Below, one piece after another: positions 311-21,207 of a DNA stretch of 35,602 nt (its first letter is position 1; the number at the start of each line of letters is the position of its first letter). The position numbers and the translations under genes are program-made. The DNA comes from Elusimicrobiota bacterium. GTDB lineage: Bacteria > Elusimicrobiota > Elusimicrobia > Elusimicrobiales > Elusimicrobiaceae. The stretch spans positions 1 through 35,602 of the forward strand of contig JAQXJI010000023.1 in NCBI GenBank assembly GCA_029008615.1. The letters are read 5' to 3'. The notes below the pieces were generated by a model. The model was not told where the DNA came from. It saw only the letters and a list, made by a program, of their open reading frames with translations, and searched no databases.

Positions 311-413
311 TTTGAGCCTGATTTTAGTTTTTTCGTAGTGAGGTATACTTGCGGCTATGCGAACGAAGTGAGCGAGGTATCCGAACTAAAGAAAAGGCTA
401 AAATCAGGCCAAA
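311..413. repeat. Intergenic hairpin element B
   Basis: Perfect 12-base inverted arms (GCCTGATTTTAG at 316-327, complement at 398-409) enclose a loop region. The 44-base core at 340-383 recurs in reverse orientation at 13685-13728 with 40 of 44 bases identical; all four differences are transitions. The core contains two related motifs, GAGGTATAC and GAGGTATCC. The outer arms differ from those of elements A and C, so arms and core behave as separate modules. No coding potential was seen in the rest of 1-482. Confidence 0.6.
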
Positions 414-482
414 GGTAAAAGCAAATTGTAAGCCTAAATTATTGTCGTTCAGACGGAAACCTAAAACAAAATCATAAAACAG

Positions 483-511
483 TTGACTTGTTTTTTTTTT
501 TTTGATAAATT
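483..511 (+). promoter_or_regulatory. Poly-T spacer promoter, cassette 1 (T13)
   Basis: The -35 box is TTGACT (483-488) and the -10 candidate is TAAATT (506-511). The 17-base spacer is almost entirely a run of 13 T (491-503). The same promoter stands before the two paralogues with T12 and T11, giving spacers of 16 and 15. With the preferred sigma70 spacing of 17, this copy should be the strongest. Box assignment is by consensus match only. Confidence 0.6.
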
Positions 512-604
512 TAGCTCATAAATCGGCCTGCTAAAAGTGAGATATCTATGTTTTAGCTTAGGTTAGTTTAAACAGGCAGATTAACTCTAAAGGAGGTAAA
601 AAAG
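512..604 (+). promoter_or_regulatory. Conserved structured 5' leader, cassette 1
   Basis: This untranslated leader is almost identical in all three Cys-rich cassettes. AATCGGCCTG (521-530) can pair with CAGGCAGATT (573-582) over 9 of 10 positions with one G-A mismatch, closing a loop of about 42 bases. The strong Shine-Dalgarno AGGAGG (591-596) lies just after the stem, 8 nt before ATG 605. The leader also carries TTAGTTTAAAC (563-573), which matches a palindrome before the next gene. A role in translation control or mRNA stability is inference. Confidence 0.5.
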
Positions 605-1438
605 ATGCTAAAAAATAAAACGGTTAGGAAAAGATTTATAAGCAAAATCTTATCATTGTTAACTTTATTTGTAGTTGTATCCGCACCTGCTTTATTTGCG
701 GCAGTAGCTTCATGCACTGGTAATACAGGTACGAGTGGTACTAGATATGGAACAATTAACGGAACTTGTTATGCTTATTATTGCAAGGATGAAACAATGA
801 CTAAATTAGGCGGTGTAAATTCATCTCAATGTGCAAATTGCAGTGGAGTGAAATACGCACCTTCGGGGAATTGCGGAACATGTGAATATAAATGTTGCAG
901 CGATGGGAACTGGAGCGGATGTAACCAGGCGTGCCCAGATCCTAGTGCAGCTTGTTCAAGCAGTCAATGTTGGAACGGCTCAAAGTGTGCGGATAAGCCG
1001 GCATCAGGATTACAATATAACGGCAAATGTTATTTTAAATGGACAAACTGCAGCTGTAATAAAGGAACAGGCTGGAATTGCACGCAGACTCCTGCAGATA
1101 TTCAAGATGGCAGTTGGAGCGCTCAGACAAGCAAACAATTTACTACCAATTCTGGTCTATGTAGTACTAAAGTAGATATTTCTGAGAATGCTGTGTTATC
1201 TTGTAGGAGACAAGGGGCAAGTGTGCGTGGAATACCTTTGGAGAGAATGGGGGATGGTGAGGTTACTCATACCGGTGAGTGCTTTAAGGCTATCTCTTGT
1301 AAATGTAATAATACTGGTAAGACTATTCCAGTGGACCAATTAGGTAATATCCGTACGTACTGTTTGGGCACCGGCAGTTCTGGCGCCACATGCACTGGTA
1401 AGACTCTTACTTGTAGTTCACACAAGTCACCTTGTTGA
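605..1438 (+). CDS. Secreted 27-cysteine protein, paralogue 1
   Basis: I do not recognise the family. The 277-aa precursor starts with a lysine/arginine-rich n-region and a hydrophobic stretch ending near residue 32 (PALFA), a Sec signal peptide. Cleavage after LFA is likely; VASC at 34-37 also loosely fits a lipobox. The mature part holds 27 Cys (about 10%), many Gly, Ser, Thr and Asn, and no membrane segment, suggesting a disulfide-rich extracellular protein. The N-terminal half (to about residue 128, with CEYKCC and CSSSQCWNGSKC) is nearly identical to the paralogues at 2699 and 14298; the C-terminal half matches 14298 closely and 2699 only weakly. The start is fixed by AGGAGG 8 nt upstream. 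The upstream T tract makes on/off expression likely. A surface adhesin, colonisation factor or antigen is plausible, but unproven. Confidence 0.85.
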   Translation: MLKNKTVRKRFISKILSLLTLFVVVSAPALFAAVASCTGNTGTSGTRYGTINGTCYAYYCKDETMTKLGGVNSSQCANCSGVKYAPSGNCGTCEYKCCSDGNWSGCNQACPDPSAACSSSQCWNGSKCADKPASGLQYNGKCYFKWTNCSCNKGTGWNCTQTPADIQDGSWSAQTSKQFTTNSGLCSTKVDISENAVLSCRRQGASVRGIPLERMGDGEVTHTGECFKAISCKCNNTGKTIPVDQLGNIRTYCLGTGSSGATCTGKTLTCSSHKSPC

Positions 1439-1480
1439 ATTTGTTAGCATTCAGCTGACAATAAACCTCGAAACTAACCG

Positions 1481-1512
1481 CCCCGGTTTGCTTAAGGCAA
1501 GCCGGGGTTTTT
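1481..1512 (+). terminator. Intrinsic terminator of cassette 1
   Basis: A CCCCGGTTTGC / GCAAGCCGGGG stem with a short loop is followed by five T. The 40 or so bases before it are nearly identical to those after the third paralogue. Confidence 0.85.
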
Positions 1513-2577: not shown

Positions 2578-2605
2578 TTGACTTGTTTTTTTTTTTTGAT
2601 AAATT
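2578..2605 (+). promoter_or_regulatory. Poly-T spacer promoter, cassette 2 (T12)
   Basis: TTGACT (2578-2583) and TAAATT (2600-2605) are separated by 16 bases that include 12 T (2586-2597). It is otherwise the same as the promoters at 483 and 14178. The conserved leader follows, with stem arms at 2615-2624 and 2667-2676. Confidence 0.6.
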
Positions 2606-2698: not shown

Positions 2699-3535
2699 AT
2701 GCTAAAAAATAAAACGGTTAGGAAAAGATTTATAAGCAAAATCTTATTTTTGTTAGCTTTATTTATAGTTGTTTGTATTCCCGCTTCATTTGCGGCAGTA
2801 GCTTCATGCACTGGTAATACAGGTACGAGTGGTACTAGATATGGAACAATTAACGGAACTTGTTATGCTTATTATTGCAGTAATGGAACAGTAAATAAAT
2901 TAGGCAGTATGAATTCATCTTACTGTGCAAATTGCAGCGGCGTGAAATACGAACCTTCGGGGAATTGCGGAACATGTGAATATAAATGCTGCAGCGACGG
3001 GAACTGGAGCGGATGTAACCAGGCATGCCCAGATCCGAGTGCGGCTTGTTCAAGCAGTCAATGCTGGAACGGCTCAAAATGCGTCGATAAGCCCGGCAAA
3101 CAGTATGACGGCACATGTTATTATACTTGGTCAAGCTGTACTTGCAATAAGGGCAGCGGCTGGAGTTGCAGCGGGAAAAACTATGAAAGTCGAAAGACGC
3201 AAAAGGGAACATGGACATATTGGGGCGATAAGACTTATAGCTCCTCAAAACCGTCTTCTACATGTCAATATAGCGTTAATACTTATCTCAATGGTTCTAG
3301 CTATACTCCTACGGATGCACTTGCTACTACAGTGTGTCAGAAACAGGCGGCCGGCGTTACAGGTACACCGGTAGGTACGACTACATGGAGCGGAAGCTGC
3401 CGAGTAGTAGGATCCTGCTGGTGTGTGAGTTATAGCGGCTCAGTAATTGGTGATGGTAATTCTTATTGCAACACCAGTATGTATAAATGCCAAATAAGAG
3501 AGGTGAGTTGCTCTGAGGAGTCTGTTTGCGGCTAA
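2699..3535 (+). CDS. Secreted 27-cysteine protein, paralogue 2
   Basis: This 278-aa precursor has the same signal peptide and N-terminal Cys-rich domain as the 605 protein, almost residue for residue to about position 128. After that the sequence changes sharply (Tyr/Ser/Thr-rich, with SYTPTDALATTVC). A framework is still recognisable: C-x-x-Q-A-x-x-V-x-G-x-P, then GSC, a gap of four, and CWC. The total is again 27 Cys, so the cysteine scaffold is kept while the sequence between cysteines varies. It has the strong AGGAGG site and its own terminator, and is monocistronic. Function unknown; the pattern fits a surface-exposed, disulfide-stabilised protein under diversifying pressure. Confidence 0.85.
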   Translation: MLKNKTVRKRFISKILFLLALFIVVCIPASFAAVASCTGNTGTSGTRYGTINGTCYAYYCSNGTVNKLGSMNSSYCANCSGVKYEPSGNCGTCEYKCCSDGNWSGCNQACPDPSAACSSSQCWNGSKCVDKPGKQYDGTCYYTWSSCTCNKGSGWSCSGKNYESRKTQKGTWTYWGDKTYSSSKPSSTCQYSVNTYLNGSSYTPTDALATTVCQKQAAGVTGTPVGTTTWSGSCRVVGSCWCVSYSGSVIGDGNSYCNTSMYKCQIREVSCSEESVCG

Positions 3536-3569
3536 TTTACCGGGATAAAACCCGACTCTCAACTAACCG

Positions 3570-3604
3570 CCCCGCCCTAGCGAAAGCAAAGGCGGGGTTT
3601 TGTT
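3570..3604 (+). terminator. Intrinsic terminator of cassette 2
   Basis: A CCCCGCC / GGCGGGG stem with a GCGAAAGC-type inner loop is followed by a T-rich tail. The same form ends cassette 3. Confidence 0.85.
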
Positions 3605-12468: not shown

Positions 12469-13485
12469 ATGTCAATTAAAAAAACAGTTGCAATTTTAAG
12501 TCTTGCTCTTTTGTCGCCTTTTGTTTGCGCGTCCGAAATGGATTCTTTCTTGGAGCAGAACGGGGCGAACTCTGCTGCTTTGGGTTCGGCGCTTGCGGCG
12601 GCCGCATCGGCTGTGGTGAAAACCGACGGCTACAAATATAATTATAAGCCGATAGTTTTTGAACTTACCACTACCCATCACAGAACTATTTATGTGCTTA
12701 ACGGCGTTGGCGAAAGGGTAAATATAAGTTATAAAGACGACGGCCTCTGGGGCAAGGGCGCTGGGGATTTTGAAGCCAAATGTTACGGCACTTTGCTTAA
12801 TAAAGATTATATGCTTACGCATAAGCACTGTTTGGGACTTCCTGATATGGACTATAATGACCCTGACGTACTTGAAGAAGCTTGGCTTGAATGGGAGCCT
12901 ATATCTATGAAATTTAAAAAAGACGGCCGCGAACTTTATTTTAATATGAAGGATATTGGTAGCAATTATTGGATTGACGAAAAGAGCGGCGCGGCTTTGG
13001 TAAAAATAAGCAATTTGTGCCTGCAGAAACACGCCACTTCCGCCAGCAATGTTTGCGTAGCTTTTTGGGAGTGGGCGACTAGCTCAGAAGGGGAAAAATT
13101 CAGCATAAAAAACAATTACGGCACCGTAATTTTATCCAATATAAACGCTAATGACAATGTGCAGGATTCTTTCTTGGGAAGAGTTTTCTTTACGCCCAAC
13201 GGTGAAGACAGAACCGCCGCTTCCGTAAAGAAGGGCGTACTTACCCTTAAAGGCTCCGCGAAGAAAACTTTACTTGCCGAACCTATTTTCCACAGAGCGA
13301 ACGGAACTACTAATATATTGGTCGGTATAAAGAAATCCAGCGAACGCGTTGAGAAAACTGTTGAGTATACCAAAACCAACGATTACGCTTTATTCTCTTC
13401 CGATTTTACCAAACTTATCAAGAGCGTCATCAAAAAAGGCGGAGTTAAACTTACTAAGGATTTAAAAAATCAGACTTCGCTTTAG
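12469..13485 (+). CDS. Secreted trypsin-fold protein, probably catalytically inactive
   Basis: The 338-aa precursor has a clear signal peptide (cleavage near residue 21, VCA|SE). Residues 105-121, CYGTLLNKDYMLTHKHC, line up with the trypsin segment running from Cys42 to His57-Cys58, with the same 16-residue cysteine spacing. This points to an S1-type serine protease fold. The later hallmarks are damaged: where the catalytic Asp is expected there is KSGAALVKI (172-180), without Asp. Where GDSGGP is expected there is GSAKKTLLAEPIF (262-274), without the Ser motif, followed by the usual LVGI. So only the His survives. A non-enzymatic binding or inhibitory role is inference; a very divergent active protease is the alternative. 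It stands alone with its own promoter and terminator. Confidence 0.7.
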   Translation: MSIKKTVAILSLALLSPFVCASEMDSFLEQNGANSAALGSALAAAASAVVKTDGYKYNYKPIVFELTTTHHRTIYVLNGVGERVNISYKDDGLWGKGAGDFEAKCYGTLLNKDYMLTHKHCLGLPDMDYNDPDVLEEAWLEWEPISMKFKKDGRELYFNMKDIGSNYWIDEKSGAALVKISNLCLQKHATSASNVCVAFWEWATSSEGEKFSIKNNYGTVILSNINANDNVQDSFLGRVFFTPNGEDRTAASVKKGVLTLKGSAKKTLLAEPIFHRANGTTNILVGIKKSSERVEKTVEYTKTNDYALFSSDFTKLIKSVIKKGGVKLTKDLKNQTSL

Positions 13486-14177: not shown

Positions 14178-14204
14178 TTGACTTGTTTTTTTTTTTGATA
14201 AATT
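14178..14204 (+). promoter_or_regulatory. Poly-T spacer promoter, cassette 3 (T11)
   Basis: TTGACT (14178-14183) and TAAATT (14199-14204) are separated by 15 bases with 11 T (14186-14196). By spacing this should be the weakest of the three. The conserved leader follows, with stem arms at 14214-14223 and 14266-14275. Confidence 0.6.
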
Positions 14205-14297: not shown

Positions 14298-15128
14298 ATG
14301 CTAAAAAATAAAACGGTTAGGAAAAGATTTATAAGCAAAATCTTATCACTGTTAGCTTTATTTGTAGTTGTATCCACACCTGCTTTATTTGCGGTAGTGC
14401 CTTCATGCACCGGTGTTGGGGATCAAAATACAAGATATGGCACAATAAACGGAACATGCTGGGCTTATTATTGCAATAATGGAACTGTTACAAAATTAGG
14501 AACCGTGGCTAATTCTTACTGTGCGGCTTGTAGCGGCGTGAAATACGCACCTTCGGGGAATTGCGGTACATGTGAATATAAATGCTGCAGTGACGGAAAC
14601 TGGAGCGGATGTAACCAGGTATGTCCAGATCCTAGTGCGGCTTGTTCAAGCAGTCAATGCTGGGACGGCTCAAAGTGTGCGAATCAGCCGTCATCAGAAT
14701 TACAATATAACGGACACTGTTTCTTTCATTGGAGAAACTGCACCTGTAATAAAGGAACAGGTTGGAGTTGCACGCAGATTCCTGCAGATATTCAAGATGG
14801 CAGTTGGGGCGCTCAGACAAGCAAACAATTTAATAACGCTACTGGTGTATGTAGTACTCGTGTAAATATGTCTGAGGCAGCTGTGCTATCTTGTAGGAGG
14901 CAAGGGGCAAGTGTGCGTGGAATACCGCTTGAGCAAATGGGGGACGGGAAGAGTGTTCATACCGGTGAGTGCTTTGCGGTTACCTCTTGTAAATGTAATA
15001 ACTCTGGTAAGACTCTTACGGTGGACCAATTAGGTAATCTCCGTACGTACTGTACGGGCTACGGCAGTACTGGCGCTACATGCTATGGTAAGACTCTTAC
15101 TTGCAGCACACACAAGTCGCCTTGTTGA
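14298..15128 (+). CDS. Secreted 27-cysteine protein, paralogue 3
   Basis: This 276-aa precursor is colinear with the 605 protein over its whole length, including the C-terminal half (CRRQGASVRGIPLEQMGDG and the ending CSTHKSPC). Many scattered substitutions separate them, but all 27 Cys are kept. The signal peptide is nearly identical; the first mature cysteine follows VPS instead of VAS, which fits a lipobox poorly and favours signal peptidase I. AGGAGGG lies 7 nt upstream of ATG. The gene lies more than 10 kb from the other two yet has the same promoter, leader and terminator, so the unit that was copied is the entire cassette. Function unknown. Confidence 0.85.
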   Translation: MLKNKTVRKRFISKILSLLALFVVVSTPALFAVVPSCTGVGDQNTRYGTINGTCWAYYCNNGTVTKLGTVANSYCAACSGVKYAPSGNCGTCEYKCCSDGNWSGCNQVCPDPSAACSSSQCWDGSKCANQPSSELQYNGHCFFHWRNCTCNKGTGWSCTQIPADIQDGSWGAQTSKQFNNATGVCSTRVNMSEAAVLSCRRQGASVRGIPLEQMGDGKSVHTGECFAVTSCKCNNSGKTLTVDQLGNLRTYCTGYGSTGATCYGKTLTCSTHKSPC

Positions 15129-15170
15129 ATTTGTTAGCATTCAGCTGACAATAAACCTCAAAACTAACCG

Positions 15171-15205
15171 CCCCGCCCGAGCGAAAGCCAAGGCGGGGTT
15201 TTTCT
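15171..15205 (+). terminator. Intrinsic terminator of cassette 3
   Basis: A CCCCGCC / GGCGGGG stem with an inner GCGAAAGC-like loop, then a T tract. The upstream 40 bases match those after cassette 1, the stem itself that of cassette 2. Confidence 0.85.
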
Positions 15206-15612: not shown

Positions 15613-15687
15613 ATGCCCTAAGCTATAAAGAAAAGTAAAAAGTAAATTGCTTGGGTATATGAAAATTAAAAAACGGTGCTTAATCAA

Positions 15688-18600
15688 ATGAAAAGAAAAT
15701 TAGCTTCCATAGGCGTAAAAATTATTTCCGTGGTATTGTCTTTCGTGATTCTTTTTGAATGCAACGCCGCCGCTTTTACGGGTATTGAGTCGGCGGATTT
15801 TTCCACTTTGCCATCTTTTGAAGGTTCGTTTAATCTGTTTAACGACAATGCCGGCTCATTTGATTTTAACTTGGAAGAACTCTATTTAAAGGGAAATGAG
15901 GGTAATATTTATGAAGCCGCGCTTAACAGGGAAACCGCGGCGGCCTTGCGCAAGCTTGAGCAAGGCGGCAAAAAGGCCAAAATCGCGGCTTTGAACAGAG
16001 AGGGAAAGGCTAAATACGGTCTTCTTGCGCCGATGTACGTCAAAATAAAATCTTATAAGATATTGAATGCGCTTGAGGCCGATTTGGGCTCATATTTGGC
16101 CGAACAACTTTCGCCCAGAACCGTAATGCCTTATAAAAAATATGAAGAACTTTATAAAACTGAAGTAAAAAAACAGGCTAAGGAATACGCAAAATTAAGC
16201 GGCGGAAAAACTGTTCCGCCTTTCCGCTCCGCGGAAGACGCCGTAATTAACGAAATTTATTCCATTTATCCCGTTAAAACCGCCTATGCGGACTATAAAA
16301 AAGAAGCCCAAGCAGAAATATCTTGGCGCAAAGCCAATATCGGTAAAGTTCAGGAAGCGGCCTATAAAGTTGCCAGAAAATATATAGAAGCGATAGGGGC
16401 GGACAATCTTTCCGTGCCGACGTTTTCTTATCTCGTAAATTTAAAATTAAACGGTAAACCGGTCTTGACGACGCAGGACCGCCTTGCCGTATATAATTAT
16501 GCCGTTACCCGCTTGGAAAAACAAAATCTTAAAGCTTTACAGCTTGGCATTACCAGCAGTCAAAAAGATAAAAAAGTGGCCGCCAATTTGTTGCAGGATA
16601 TAGTAGAAACTATGGTTTTGGGCGGATATGTAGTCGGTAAAGACAAAGGCAGATACGCCAAAGCTGTGGAGAAAGTCATATATGAAGGGGAAGACGGAAT
16701 AGGTTCGGCCAATATATTGGCTGCGGGGTTTTCTTCCTTGTTGGCCGTAAAAGATTATGCCGCGCTTAAAAGGATTTTAAACCATTACACCGTTAAGGAA
16801 AATTCTTCCGCTTCTTTCGGGGATTATATCTCTTTGACTTATTATTCCGGCAAGGTAAAAACCGCCGGAGGAAGGTTTTTGGGGCGCGCTTCCGTAAATA
16901 CCCAGTACAGCACCCGCTATATTTACGCAAATACTTTTACGGATTTGGCCAAGCTCTTGGCCGAGGAGGGCAGTCAGGCTTCCCTCGCTTTGCTTAAAGA
17001 ATACGGCGTTGATAAAGGTTTTGATAAATCTATCAGGCCCTTTTATGCAGGTGCGCTTTTAAGCGGCAAATCCGGCGCGGACGCCAAAACGGCGCAGCGT
17101 TATGCTTTGGACTTGGCGAATTTAACTTTGGGCGATATACCCGCAACCCAGGAATATGATTTGGACAGAGCGCTCTTAGCCAAATATTCCGGCATAAAAA
17201 ACGGCTTAAATTCCGGCGCGGTAATTACCAAAGCTCAATATCAGGCAAGGCTTACCCGCAACAAAAATTTAAGATACTTGGACAGAGCGGCGTTCTCTTT
17301 GGATGTTTTGCTTATGGTTTGGGGTACGATAGGGTTGGCAAAACTCGGCGGTAAAGCTTTAAGTTTAAGCCGTTCGACCTATACCGCAATTAGGGCCGGC
17401 AGAATAGCCGACCAAGCCAAACGCATAGCTTATATAAAAGCCAATTACGCCAAACTCGGCGGCTATATATCGGCGCGCAACAGTATGTTAAGGCTGGGCA
17501 GCCGCATAAAAGCCGGCGGTTTTAGAATAAAAGCTTTATTTACCGGCAAGCCGGTTCCGGCCGCAAAGCCTACGCCTAAAGAGATAAAATTACAAAATTG
17601 GGCGGATAGACGTCAGCTTGCCAGATTGAACGAAACGCGCGTGAAAACGCAAGCAAAAGTGGCTTCTTCTTCAAAACCTACCCCAAGAATGCAGGCAAAA
17701 GCGGATTTGGCCGCAGCCCAATATGAAGCTAAAAAAGCCCAGATAGATTTATTAACCAAAGCCCGCCTTTACGGAGCAAGCGCGGATGCTAAAAACGCTT
17801 CTTATTTGGCGAAAGTAAAAGAATATAATGCCGCCGCGGAACTTTATAATTCCAAATTGGCTTTGCTTTCCAAATATCGGGCCGAGGGGGCGGCCGCTTC
17901 GGTAATAGAAGCTTTGGAGGCGGAAGTTAACGCTTTGGCCGAAACCTTAAAAACAAAGCCTTCTTTGCCAGTTTTCACGGCGGGGGAAACTTCCTTATTG
18001 GAAGCGAATACCCTTTTTAAATCTTCCGTTTCATCTTTAAGACAGGCCCAGTCCGCTTATAAAGCGACCGGTTGGTGGAGCAGAAATATTTTACAGCCTT
18101 GGAAGAATTTGGGTTCCTCCGGCGATGGCACTTTGGGACTTTGGCGCCTTGAAACCGAACCCGGCATAACCATAGCCGAAGCTTTGGGTGACACCAGGCC
18201 GTATAACCCGGATTATACGTCGGGATTAAGGCTTTTTTCCGGTAATCCCGATTATGTCAGCCCGGCAAGCAAATTTTATACTTTTCTTGAAAATCATCAT
18301 CTTACGCCCGTATCCAAAACATTAAAATTCATAAATAACAGGGCTACGATATTGGGCACATCTTTGCTGCTCAACTATAATGTAGCCACGGTTACGCCCG
18401 AAGCTTTAAACGCCGGCAGATTTTTGACGACGGGTACGGAACTTGTGGTAAACACCGGCAACGGGGCAAAATTGGCGGGGGCGCTTGATTTCGGCAAGGC
18501 GGCGTCCATTCCGCTGAAACCCGTAACCTCAAACCTTACTCCGGTAAGCGTAATAGATCCAAAAATATTCCAATTTTATCAAGGTGTTCCTTTGCCGGGC

Positions 18601-21207
18601 GGCAATTTGATAAACAGCTTAAGCCTCAAAGGATTTTTGGGTAATGTCTATAAAACCGGCTTTGCGGCCGGCGCGGGCGTCGCTTTCCCGTTAATGCTCG
18701 GGAAAGATTTATATAAAATTTTAGACAACAGAATTATGGGCGTTGCCCCGATTCAAGCGCGCAGATCCGCCAATCTTTATAATTTGGGCGGCGCGGATTT
18801 CTATCCGTACGGCGTCGAAGGGCAAAACTTCTTAAATCAAAAAGCTGCGCAAAACGGCGGGTTTGCACTTTTTACTCCGAAAGAATGGAGCGATTTTACA
18901 GCCAAGTTCGGTGGAAATAATTACGTTTATGAAGTACCCGGCGTGCCCAATTTCAGTTCCTCCGGCCGGGCATACAGAATGCCGTCAGCGGCTTTTTCTC
19001 TTCCGAAATCAAAAATCTATTTTGACGAAAACGGCAATATCGCTTCGGAAGATGAGGTTCTTGCAGCTTCGGCTATGCTGCCTTACGCCGAAGATATGCA
19101 GGGCAGAAGTTTTACTATGAGTGTAGCCACAAATGAAGGCGGTCAGGTTCTGCCCGTAAAGCTTACCTTTAGTAAAGATTTTGACGCAAAAGGCTATACA
19201 AATGTGGTTTTCTTAAATAATGTTGCCGAACTTAGAGAATACGGCAAAAAGCCGAGGGTAATGTCCAACTTCTATTTAAGATTGAAAACCGAGCATAAGA
19301 GCCTTTTGAAATTTGCCAACAGGCTTAAAGCTTTGGGAGAGAGCATAACCCTTAAAATTTGGCAATACGGCATAGAGCCGGATAAAACCGCAACCGTTCC
19401 TTTATACTACGGCGACGGTGCAGAAGAACTGCCGATAAAAGTTATTACGGATGCAAGATTTGTGCAAGACGGACGCAAACTTGTTTTGACGCCTTCCGGC
19501 GCAATAGGCGTTTTATCGCCGAAAGGCGGAATGCCGGATATTATAACCTCTTCCGTTGTGGTTAGAATACCGAAAAACCAAAGAGGGGTTTTGCTTAAAA
19601 TGCTAGCCTCTTCCGAAGACGTTATGCCGATAGAAGTAATGCCGAGTTACGACAAAGCGACGGTAATCATAAAACAGGGGTTCTACATTAACCCGAGCCT
19701 CGGCAAAACTTTGGGCCCGGTTCTGCCGGAATCATTGGGTGTCAGCGAAGCTTTCGCCACCAATTTGATGTATATCGTTAACTATCTGCCGGGCATTTTA
19801 TCCCCGCTTTTAAATCCGTTGGTAAAGAAATACGGCGAAGTGGCGATGTTTAAAGCTTCAATATCCATATCAATGCTTGCGGCGATACTGCCTTCCGTAT
19901 TCGGTTTTTACGGATACTCTTCCACTATGGAACCGACAATGCTCAGGACGATTTCCTTAACTTTGGCTTTGTTTGCCTTGGCTTTCTCAATCAATATAAG
20001 GAACGTAATAGGCAATTCCCTGATAAATATGAACAGGGGCGGAATGCCGATATCCAAAGATAAGAAAAAGGATGATAAAAATCTTACCGAAGCGGTTAAA
20101 ATTACTACGGATGTTTTGGCGGACAAATTTAAAAAGCTTTTCTCGTCCGGCAGTGATTTTTCAATGCAGGATATTTTGTACTATAACCGCAGTTTTATCA
20201 ACAAAAACTTGGGAACGATGGCTTTCCTTATCGCTCCTTCCGTACTGAATTATGCGGGCAAGCCTTTTGGTTTTGATTTTAACTTCGGTTGGGACGTATC
20301 TTTGCCCTTATACGCCGCCTACAGCGCTTATGCGGGATATAAAGTTCACAAAACCAATTTAAGGGACAATATAATAATCGACCATATTAAAAACGACGTC
20401 TACCAAATGGAAGATATTTCGGCCGAGGGTCAAGCCGCAAAAGCCGCTGACGACGCGAAAGATAAAAAACTTTGGGACGACGTTAAAGAAGTTTTTAATA
20501 TTATGCTTCATAAAGAGGGCGTTATGGGGATAGTTGCCGGTATGTCTTTAGCTACGGCTCATGAACTTTCCGTCAGCAGTGCGTTTTCCTCAACGCTTTA
20601 TCAAATTGTCCCCGACGGCGATATGGCCACGATTATGGTCATAGGCGTTTTATACGGTTCTTTGATGCTCGGAAGGCTTCTTGGCAATATCACTACGACC
20701 AGGATGTCATCCGGCACATCTTATTTTGTATATTCATTGCTTTCAGGTTTGGGAACCGCGGGTATAATGGGCGGCATTATGGCCGATTCGCCTTCTACGA
20801 TAATCGCCGGCGGCGTAATAGCCAGTATAGGTATAGGCAATTACTTCTCGCAGATGTTCGCCTATATCATAAGGAAACACCCGGAACTTCAAAGCCAGAT
20901 TTCCCAAGCTTTAAGTTTTACTATGCCGCTTGCGGTTGCGCTTTCAATGCCGATAACCTATCTTAACGATTGGAGCGGCCTTCCTTACGCCCGCGTGATG
21001 GCTTCCTTAGCGATGTTGGTTGCAAGTATGGTCTGCACAAAAGGAATGCTTGATAATTCCACTCTCTACAAATACATAGTGCAGGAATTTAAAGAAGCGT
21101 CCGATTACGTCGTAGGCCTTTATAAAGGTAAAGGCAAACTCAAAGACGGCGAAAGCGGCGGCGCTCAAAAGCCGTCTTCTCCCGAAGGTAACGACCAAGC
21201 AAAATAA
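15688..21207 (+). CDS. Giant exported protein with C-terminal MFS-like membrane domain
   Basis: From ATG 15688 the product is 1839 aa; an in-frame GTG at 15676 would add four residues. I choose the ATG because it gives a normal MKRK signal-peptide start (hydrophobic to about residue 29); neither start has a Shine-Dalgarno. Residues 30-530 are soluble and lysine/alanine-rich, a hydrophobic segment lies near 540, and a probable coiled coil spans about 665-770. A long region (about 800-1340) is rich in Tyr, Gly and Asn. From about 1350 to 1785 there are 11-12 membrane segments in two blocks split by a charged loop (about 1455-1480, with a second near 1570-1615), as in major facilitator transporters, including GSLMLGRLLG. 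I know no named family with this architecture. It could be a transporter with a periplasmic capture module. It has its own terminator. Confidence 0.75.
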   Translation: MKRKLASIGVKIISVVLSFVILFECNAAAFTGIESADFSTLPSFEGSFNLFNDNAGSFDFNLEELYLKGNEGNIYEAALNRETAAALRKLEQGGKKAKIAALNREGKAKYGLLAPMYVKIKSYKILNALEADLGSYLAEQLSPRTVMPYKKYEELYKTEVKKQAKEYAKLSGGKTVPPFRSAEDAVINEIYSIYPVKTAYADYKKEAQAEISWRKANIGKVQEAAYKVARKYIEAIGADNLSVPTFSYLVNLKLNGKPVLTTQDRLAVYNYAVTRLEKQNLKALQLGITSSQKDKKVAANLLQDIVETMVLGGYVVGKDKGRYAKAVEKVIYEGEDGIGSANILAAGFSSLLAVKDYAALKRILNHYTVKENSSASFGDYISLTYYSGKVKTAGGRFLGRASVNTQYSTRYIYANTFTDLAKLLAEEGSQASLALLKEYGVDKGFDKSIRPFYAGALLSGKSGADAKTAQRYALDLANLTLGDIPATQEYDLDRALLAKYSGIKNGLNSGAVITKAQYQARLTRNKNLRYLDRAAFSLDVLLMVWGTIGLAKLGGKALSLSRSTYTAIRAGRIADQAKRIAYIKANYAKLGGYISARNSMLRLGSRIKAGGFRIKALFTGKPVPAAKPTPKEIKLQNWADRRQLARLNETRVKTQAKVASSSKPTPRMQAKADLAAAQYEAKKAQIDLLTKARLYGASADAKNASYLAKVKEYNAAAELYNSKLALLSKYRAEGAAASVIEALEAEVNALAETLKTKPSLPVFTAGETSLLEANTLFKSSVSSLRQAQSAYKATGWWSRNILQPWKNLGSSGDGTLGLWRLETEPGITIAEALGDTRPYNPDYTSGLRLFSGNPDYVSPASKFYTFLENHHLTPVSKTLKFINNRATILGTSLLLNYNVATVTPEALNAGRFLTTGTELVVNTGNGAKLAGALDFGKAASIPLKPVTSNLTPVSVIDPKIFQFYQGVPLPGGNLINSLSLKGFLGNVYKTGFAAGAGVAFPLMLGKDLYKILDNRIMGVAPIQARRSANLYNLGGADFYPYGVEGQNFLNQKAAQNGGFALFTPKEWSDFTAKFGGNNYVYEVPGVPNFSSSGRAYRMPSAAFSLPKSKIYFDENGNIASEDEVLAASAMLPYAEDMQGRSFTMSVATNEGGQVLPVKLTFSKDFDAKGYTNVVFLNNVAELREYGKKPRVMSNFYLRLKTEHKSLLKFANRLKALGESITLKIWQYGIEPDKTATVPLYYGDGAEELPIKVITDARFVQDGRKLVLTPSGAIGVLSPKGGMPDIITSSVVVRIPKNQRGVLLKMLASSEDVMPIEVMPSYDKATVIIKQGFYINPSLGKTLGPVLPESLGVSEAFATNLMYIVNYLPGILSPLLNPLVKKYGEVAMFKASISISMLAAILPSVFGFYGYSSTMEPTMLRTISLTLALFALAFSINIRNVIGNSLINMNRGGMPISKDKKKDDKNLTEAVKITTDVLADKFKKLFSSGSDFSMQDILYYNRSFINKNLGTMAFLIAPSVLNYAGKPFGFDFNFGWDVSLPLYAAYSAYAGYKVHKTNLRDNIIIDHIKNDVYQMEDISAEGQAAKAADDAKDKKLWDDVKEVFNIMLHKEGVMGIVAGMSLATAHELSVSSAFSSTLYQIVPDGDMATIMVIGVLYGSLMLGRLLGNITTTRMSSGTSYFVYSLLSGLGTAGIMGGIMADSPSTIIAGGVIASIGIGNYFSQMFAYIIRKHPELQSQISQALSFTMPLAVALSMPITYLNDWSGLPYARVMASLAMLVASMVCTKGMLDNSTLYKYIVQEFKEASDYVVGLYKGKGKLKDGESGGAQKPSSPEGNDQAK

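What the first reader, a model, noticed from the sequence alone, without database searches (positions are those of the whole stretch)
605..1438. Secreted protein family with a fixed 27-cysteine scaffold and variable C-terminal half
All three paralogues (605, 2699, 14298) have 27 Cys. Their first ~128 residues are nearly identical, but paralogue 2 has a very different C-terminal half that keeps the cysteine framework. The pattern suggests a structural scaffold displaying variable surfaces, as in antigenic or ligand variation. I recognise no known family. The odd cysteine count would leave one Cys for lipidation or an intermolecular bond.
Basis: partly seen in the sequence, partly recalled or inferred. 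Interest (0 to 1): 0.75.

Follow-up and report, generated by a model that had tools for sequence, protein, structure and literature searches.

The report
Switchable gene family for surface proteins
A gut bacterium of the poorly known phylum Elusimicrobiota carries over 30 scattered genes for secreted, disulfide-rich proteins with a shared front part and differing rear parts, nearly all behind a promoter with a slippery run of 8-14 T's that it also uses for pilus proteins, so it looks like a large on/off switching system for its cell surface.

Summary
The three window proteins have 27 mature cysteines each (the second has one more in its signal peptide). "27" is not a family constant: the genome holds at least 31 paralogues (E<0.001), and mature counts in own and relatives' copies run from 14 to 31. 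No Pfam, NCBIfam, PDB, PADLOC, plasmid, phage or fold match was found.

The three genes are mosaics: A and B share the first domain, A and C share the C-terminal half (0 of 2000 permutations reach the signal). A-C dN/dS is 0.17 in the N domain and 0.83 in the C half.

The main discovery lies upstream. Nearly every copy with upstream sequence has a near-identical promoter, TTGACT..T(8-14)GATAAATT, whose -35/-10 spacer is a pure poly-T tract. Of 37 T>=10 tracts in the 1.66-Mb genome, 36 are this promoter; the last is cut by a contig end. Five type IV pilin genes carry the same promoter and upstream blocks, and in sister species it sits on arrays of pilins.

Best explanation (0.6): a phase-variable, recombining repertoire of surface proteins, probably linked to type IV pili. 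Switching is inferred: one relative has ~93% of its 84 tracts at T12. Interest 0.7; new variant of a known kind.

The parts
605..1438 (+). Paralogue A: secreted Cys-rich protein, 277 aa, 27 Cys
   Evidence: ORF, Cys positions
2699..3535 (+). Paralogue B: 278 aa, 28 Cys (27 mature); N domain like A, C half of another allele class
14298..15128 (+). Paralogue C: 276 aa, 27 Cys; C half like A, N domain diverged at synonymous sites
483..511 (+). Promoter of A: -35 TTGACT (483-488), T13 tract (491-503), extended -10 TGA-TAAATT (506-511); spacer 17
2578..2605 (+). Promoter of B: TTGACT, T12 tract (2586-2597), TAAATT (2600-2605); spacer 16
14178..14204 (+). Promoter of C: TTGACT, T11 tract (14186-14196), TAAATT (14199-14204); spacer 15
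   Evidence: not listed by the consensus scan, which needs a spacer of 16-18
512..604 (+). Conserved 5' untranslated block ending in GGAGGTAAAAAAG before the ATG (same block before B and C)
1471..1512 (+). Terminator-like hairpin after A (AACTAACCGCCCCGG...CCGGGGTTTTT); same start AACTAACCGCCCCG after B and C
   Evidence: read from the sequence
3560..3602 (+). Terminator-like hairpin after B
15161..15203 (+). Terminator-like hairpin after C
410..482 (+). Upstream block of class ii (A), also found upstream of a pilin gene on contig C11
2505..2577 (+). Upstream block of class i (B, with GTGTCGTACGTCG), also before a pilin on contig C9
14105..14177 (+). Upstream block of class i (C)

Best explanation
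The three genes are members of a dispersed repertoire of 31 or more single-gene cassettes (promoter, secreted disulfide-rich protein, and for the five compared a terminator) in an Elusimicrobium-like gut bacterium. Shown: nearly all copies with upstream sequence carry a sigma-70-type promoter whose -35/-10 spacer is a pure poly-T tract of 8-14 T; such tracts are essentially confined to this promoter in the genome; five type IV pilin genes carry the same promoter; the window genes are recombinant mosaics. Inferred: replication slippage of the tract changes the spacer around an optimum of 16-17 bp, so each gene switches between on and weak/off, while homologous recombination between paralogues pairs common N-terminal Cys modules with different C-terminal domains. 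The product would be a cell-to-cell variable set of surface proteins. Because the promoter is shared with pilins, and one Cys module also occurs in a giant pilin of this genome, they probably act with type IV pili as adhesins or as variable antigens or phage targets.
For: Repertoire. Promoter in the window and in most copies. Pattern hits: 36 in own genome, 0 in the reversed control, 0-1 per genome outside the family. 36 of 37 T>=10 tracts in 1.66 Mb are this promoter, the 37th is cut off at a contig end. Spacer mode is 16 in all four genomes tallied (15 and 16 together dominate here); T-number falls as fixed spacer bases rise (slope -0.76, p = 1e-6, sites not independent), so total spacer length is what is kept. 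In close promoter pairs (4-8 differences in ~93 bp of flank) the tract differs in length in 12 of 20. Same promoter before 5 pilins here, with all three upstream block classes shared; before pilins in other species. Giant pilin >1357 aa with 101 Cys carries the module GVRTRSVTCNTSTGTWVTGSWSTC, cf. GTQTRTVTCNTSTGKWTTGSWSTC of a free protein, E = 8e-10. Pilus ATPase-type genes present. Mosaicism. Precedent: M. hyorhinis vlp genes switch by a poly-A tract in each promoter (PMC10502178); one A more or less changes N. meningitidis nspA expression (PMC6389960).
Against: No reads, no second strain and no expression data: switching itself was not observed. In relative G134 about 93% of 84 tracts are T12, and most in G121 are T12, so lengths are strongly kept rather than spread, which a static promoter would also give. 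The one near-identical orthologue pair compared (T13 vs G+T12) differs by a substitution, not a slip. The window proteins have no pilin signal and the giant pilin lacks the poly-T promoter, so the pilus link is indirect. A few Cys-rich copies show no tract in the upstream sequence held (some have only 108-230 bp before the contig end).
Confidence: 0.6

Rival explanations
1. Static regulon: the poly-T stretch is a fixed functional part of a shared promoter (DNA shape or an activator working with the upstream blocks), tuned to a 16-bp spacer; genes are co-regulated with pili but do not switch. Diversity comes from gene duplication and recombination only.
For: Near-uniform T12 in G134 and peak at T12 in G121; spacer length conserved across genomes; upstream blocks conserved in three classes.
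Against: Within this genome lengths run 8-14 with predicted spacers from 12 to 18; close promoter pairs differ in tract length in 12 of 20 cases while the tract stays pure T.
Confidence: 0.25
2. Polymorphic secreted toxins or bacteriocins: a common N-terminal export part and variable C-terminal killing domains used against competitors.
For: Constant N part with variable C part, secreted, many paralogues.
Against: No toxin family match; the C-terminal halves stay Cys-rich; no consistent small immunity gene is seen downstream in the window (next genes are a 161-aa coiled-coil-like ORF, a CDF transporter and a 1843-aa membrane protein), and terminators follow directly.
Confidence: 0.06
3. Variation by a dedicated device: site-specific inversion (shufflon) or a diversity-generating retroelement rather than slippage plus homologous recombination.
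For: Constant 5' part with variable 3' part and dispersed partial copies at contig ends.
Against: No inverted repeats of 16 bp or more around the window genes; most copies are complete genes with their own promoter; mosaic breakpoints fit recombination between full-length paralogues. Recombinase and reverse-transcriptase genes were not searched for.
Confidence: 0.04

Closest known systems
Vlp variable lipoproteins of Mycoplasma hyorhinis (PMC10502178 and my own knowledge)
   Same: Several surface-protein genes, each with its own promoter containing a homopolymer; on/off switching of transcription by tract length; constant front part and varied rear part.
   Different: Poly-A there, poly-T here; Vlps are lipoproteins with in-gene tandem repeats, absent here; far more, dispersed copies; shared with pilin genes; switching not yet shown here.
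Homopolymer-controlled promoters of Neisseria meningitidis (e.g. nspA, PMC6389960)
   Same: Length of a homopolymer next to the -10 box sets the amount of a surface protein.
   Different: Single genes there; here one promoter type is copied onto some 36 genes, and T>=10 tracts are found nowhere else in the genome.
Modular type IV pilins (PilB of Streptococcus sanguinis, PMC8179133)
   Same: Functional modules grafted on a pilin for display; the giant pilin on contig C38 and a pilin in G035 (L143) have this layout with Cys-rich modules.
   Different: The window proteins have ordinary signal peptides and no pilin module.
Thrombospondin type 1-like modules
   Same: Motif resemblance: TRT.TC..G.W..GSW..C.
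   Different: No Pfam match to any such family; resemblance is by eye only.

Membership tests
Phase-variable multigene surface families of the Vlp kind | Own promoter with a homopolymer between -35 and -10 in each gene | tested here: met
   Three of three window genes and nearly all copies with upstream sequence
Phase-variable multigene surface families of the Vlp kind | Tract length changes in clonal lines and sets expression | not testable with these tools
   One genome only, no reads or RNA data
Phase-variable multigene surface families of the Vlp kind | Lipoprotein signal | tested here: not met
   Lipobox-like motif in only 5 of 25 own copies
Phase-variable multigene surface families of the Vlp kind | In-gene tandem repeats giving size variation | tested here: not met
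   No tandem repeat in the three window genes
Type IV pilins | Class III prepilin signal / N_methyl motif (PF07963) | tested here: not met
   No Pfam match in window proteins; own genome has 18 N_methyl hits elsewhere
Modular pilins | Pilin part plus an extra module in one protein | tested here: not met
   Not met by the window proteins, which lack the pilin part. Met by the giant pilin on C38, which shares a Cys module with free family members: blastp E 8e-10, 1e-8 and 1e-5 for three copies; N_methyl E 2e-5
Thrombospondin type 1 domain (PF00090 and kin) | Profile match | tested here: inconclusive
   No match at E<=1 in Pfam; small Cys modules can be missed
Polymorphic toxins | Toxin domain with adjacent immunity gene | tested here: inconclusive
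   No family match; neighbours of the three window genes show no consistent small partner
Known protein fold of the C-terminal half | Match to a solved structure | tested here: inconclusive
   Confident model (pLDDT 88, pTM 0.77) but no Foldseek match at E<=0.001 and best VIA Z 2.4

The most novel reading that the evidence does not exclude
In the family around Elusimicrobium a single contingency promoter (pure poly-T spacer) has been copied onto dozens of genes per genome, up to 84, for type IV pilins and, in this genus, for a new family of secreted disulfide-rich proteins built of modules shared with giant pilins. Each cell would thus draw a random combination of pilus subunits and partner proteins: a genome-wide combinatorial surface lottery, enlarged by domain swapping between paralogues, in a phylum where I found no published account of phase variation.
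Probability: 0.45. Interest if true: 0.85.

Novelty: new variant of a known kind. Interest (0 to 1): 0.7.

Why it matters
It would give Elusimicrobiota, a phylum with few cultured members, a defined system for changing its surface, and make testable why these gut bacteria keep dozens of pilin and Cys-rich genes. The promoter motif is simple enough to find in any genome or metagenome, and tract lengths can be read directly in deep sequencing. It also gives a rare case in which one slippery promoter has spread over a whole regulon instead of single genes.

Tried and rejected
Enzyme or known domain: no match in Pfam, NCBIfam, PHROGs (only weak: tail fiber phrog_12940 E 5e-4 over a Cys-rich stretch, not followed), PADLOC, PDB sequences. 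Plasmid or phage origin: no match. Fold search of full model (pLDDT 70) and of C half alone (pLDDT 88): no convincing match in PDB, and none for the C half in the viral library. Horizontal transfer of a cassette between G001 and G008: their cassette is 97.7% identical, but so is their por gene (97.5%), so vertical descent suffices. Profiles of short modules against the pilins gave only low scores; pairwise BLAST gave the clear result for the giant pilin, and only weak, unproven likeness for the G035 pilin (E about 0.04). RNA families in the window: none. The genome paper of E. minutum was not held.

Full report
Check of the observation. The three ORFs exist as described. Cys totals are 27, 28 and 27; the extra Cys of the second (C26) lies in its signal peptide, so the mature proteins have 27 each. 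Between A (605) and B (2699), residues 36-128 are 90% identical and the rest 35%; between A and C (14298) the figures are 83% and 75%. The C halves of A, C, B and two relatives keep 12 Cys columns.

Size of the family. The window is contig C23 of a 1.66-Mb genome in 42 contigs. Named relatives are an uncultured Elusimicrobiales bacterium, an uncultured Elusimicrobium sp. and an unnamed uncultured bacterium. A profile of eleven paralogues finds 31 places at E<0.001 in the own genome. Among 60 related genomes searched (the own one included) it matches in 4, all of the same genus. The members share a signal peptide, a core module C.s.G..QYk.sG.CgT..RtCCsnG.WSdW...C, often followed by CW.GS.C and a second module GTQTRT.TC.SGSGW.YGSW.GTC.C, and tails that mostly do not resemble each other. 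Over 44 complete members mature Cys numbers run from 14 to 31, 33 of them odd (cleavage sites approximate, members not independent).

Mosaics. Codon comparison gives, for A-C: signal peptide dS 0.08, N domain dS 0.80, C half dS 0.19; for A-B: 0.21, 0.23, and near saturation (2.27). Sites where two of the three agree: nt 106-240, AB 34 against AC 3; nt 386-834, AB 25 against AC 180; maximum chi-square 94.6, not reached in 2000 permutations. So parts of the genes have different histories. A-C dN/dS is 0.17 in the N domain and 0.83 in the C half (Fisher p = 0.004 on rounded counts of differences). That is surplus amino-acid change in the C half, not proof of positive selection.

The promoter. About 115 bp before the five closest paralogues are nearly identical, and the block contains TTGACTTG, a run of T, and GATAAATT or a variant. 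In the window the three longest homopolymers are exactly these: T13 at 491-503, T12 at 2586-2597, T11 at 14186-14196; nothing else reaches 9. Read as a sigma-70-type promoter with an extended -10 (TGA-TAAATT), the spacers are 17, 16 and 15 bp. The pattern occurs 36 times in the own genome and never in the reversed control. All T10 matches in the whole genome fall in 37 tracts by my count; 36 are this promoter and the last touches a contig end. In the phylum the pattern is found in 57 of 294 genomes; repeated occurrence is confined to the window's family, with up to 84 sites in one genome, and other genomes have 0 or 1. A variant -10 (TACAGT) occupies the same place in many copies. Where the fixed bases before the run are 2, 3 or 4, the mean T number is 12.6, 11.8 and 11.1: the spacer length is held near 16, as expected of promoter geometry. 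In close promoter pairs the tract often differs in length (12 of 20) while it stays pure T; the pattern used favours pure tracts.

Link to pili. The same promoter stands before five type IV pilin genes in this genome (contigs C9, C10, C11, C19, C30), before pilins in a genus-mate without the Cys-rich family (G012, tandem arrays) and before pilins in other genera of the family. Upstream of the -35 there are three classes of conserved block, found in 18, 7 and 9 promoters, and each class is used both by Cys-rich genes and by pilins (one site in class i, L100, was counted Cys-rich by a loose rule). Contig C38 holds a pilin of more than 1357 aa with 101 Cys (cut off by the contig end) that contains three modules of the Cys-rich kind; blastp of one free module gives E = 8e-10, 1e-8 and 1e-5, and 2000 shuffled decoys reach at most 27.3 bits against 41.6. 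A pilin of G035 under the poly-T promoter also carries Cys-rich repeats, but their homology was not proven. Pilus ATPase-type genes are present. Literature describes pilins as the only cell appendages of the related Endomicrobiaceae and no flagella in the phylum (PMC11257099).

Genome behaviour. Sixteen of 36 promoters lie within 1 kb of a contig end (p = 5e-12 against an even spread), so the cassettes probably break the assembly and the true number is likely higher. The block from gene 12469 to por is largely collinear in three sister species, and homology stops at the Cys-rich genes on both sides; this fits rearrangement by recombination among the repeats but was not tested further.

Structure. 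With thirteen sequences the full model is poor (pLDDT 70). The C half alone folds with pLDDT 88 and pTM 0.77: four strands, helix, strand, helix, strand. No solved or viral structure matches, which does not prove a new fold.

How it most likely works. Inferred from the anatomy: slippage in the T tract moves the spacer in or out of the 16-17-bp optimum and turns each gene up or down independently; recombination among paralogues renews the combinations of N and C parts. The analogues are the vlp genes of M. hyorhinis (PMC10502178) and the nspA promoter of N. meningitidis (PMC6389960). The chief doubt is that tract lengths in some relatives are almost uniform (about 93% T12 in G134), which a static promoter would also produce; consensus assemblies hide minority lengths, so only read data can decide.

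Verdict. It works like known phase-variable surface families; membership in the Vlp kind in the strict sense is not claimed, because lipidation and in-gene repeats were tested and not met.

Noticed in passing
L182 1-4071 minus strand (contig C38 of the same genome): Giant type IV pilin, more than 1357 aa and 101 Cys, truncated at the contig end, with a long array of YYTSF..GYLN.ATSC.TGNCTN-like repeats after the Cys modules.
   Followed up: partly
G134, G121, G244, G028 and others: Relatives in a sister genus carry 20-84 copies of the poly-T promoter; those inspected stand before type IV pilin genes.
   Followed up: partly
window 2542 and 14143, and upstream of about half of the promoters: Conserved GTGTCGTACGTCG box about 35 bp before the -35, a possible regulator site.
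   Followed up: partly
L032, L033, L036, L042: In some copies the poly-T promoter lies 350-420 bp before the start codon, leaving a long 5' leader of unknown role.
   Followed up: no
window 15676-21207: 1843-aa predicted protein with a weak MFS-transporter match only in its C-terminal part; a fusion of unknown role next to paralogue C.
   Followed up: no
window 12469-13485: Secreted 338-aa protein without Pfam match; the stretch CYGTLLNKDYMLTHKHC recalls a trypsin-like catalytic His region (by eye).
   Followed up: no
L100 (contig C27): The poly-T promoter with another -35 side (TTGACATCG) stands before a large protein that is neither a pilin nor Cys-rich.
   Followed up: no
own-genome and relatives' family members: Mature Cys counts are odd in 33 of 44 members, more than expected if parity were random, though members are related.
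   Followed up: partly
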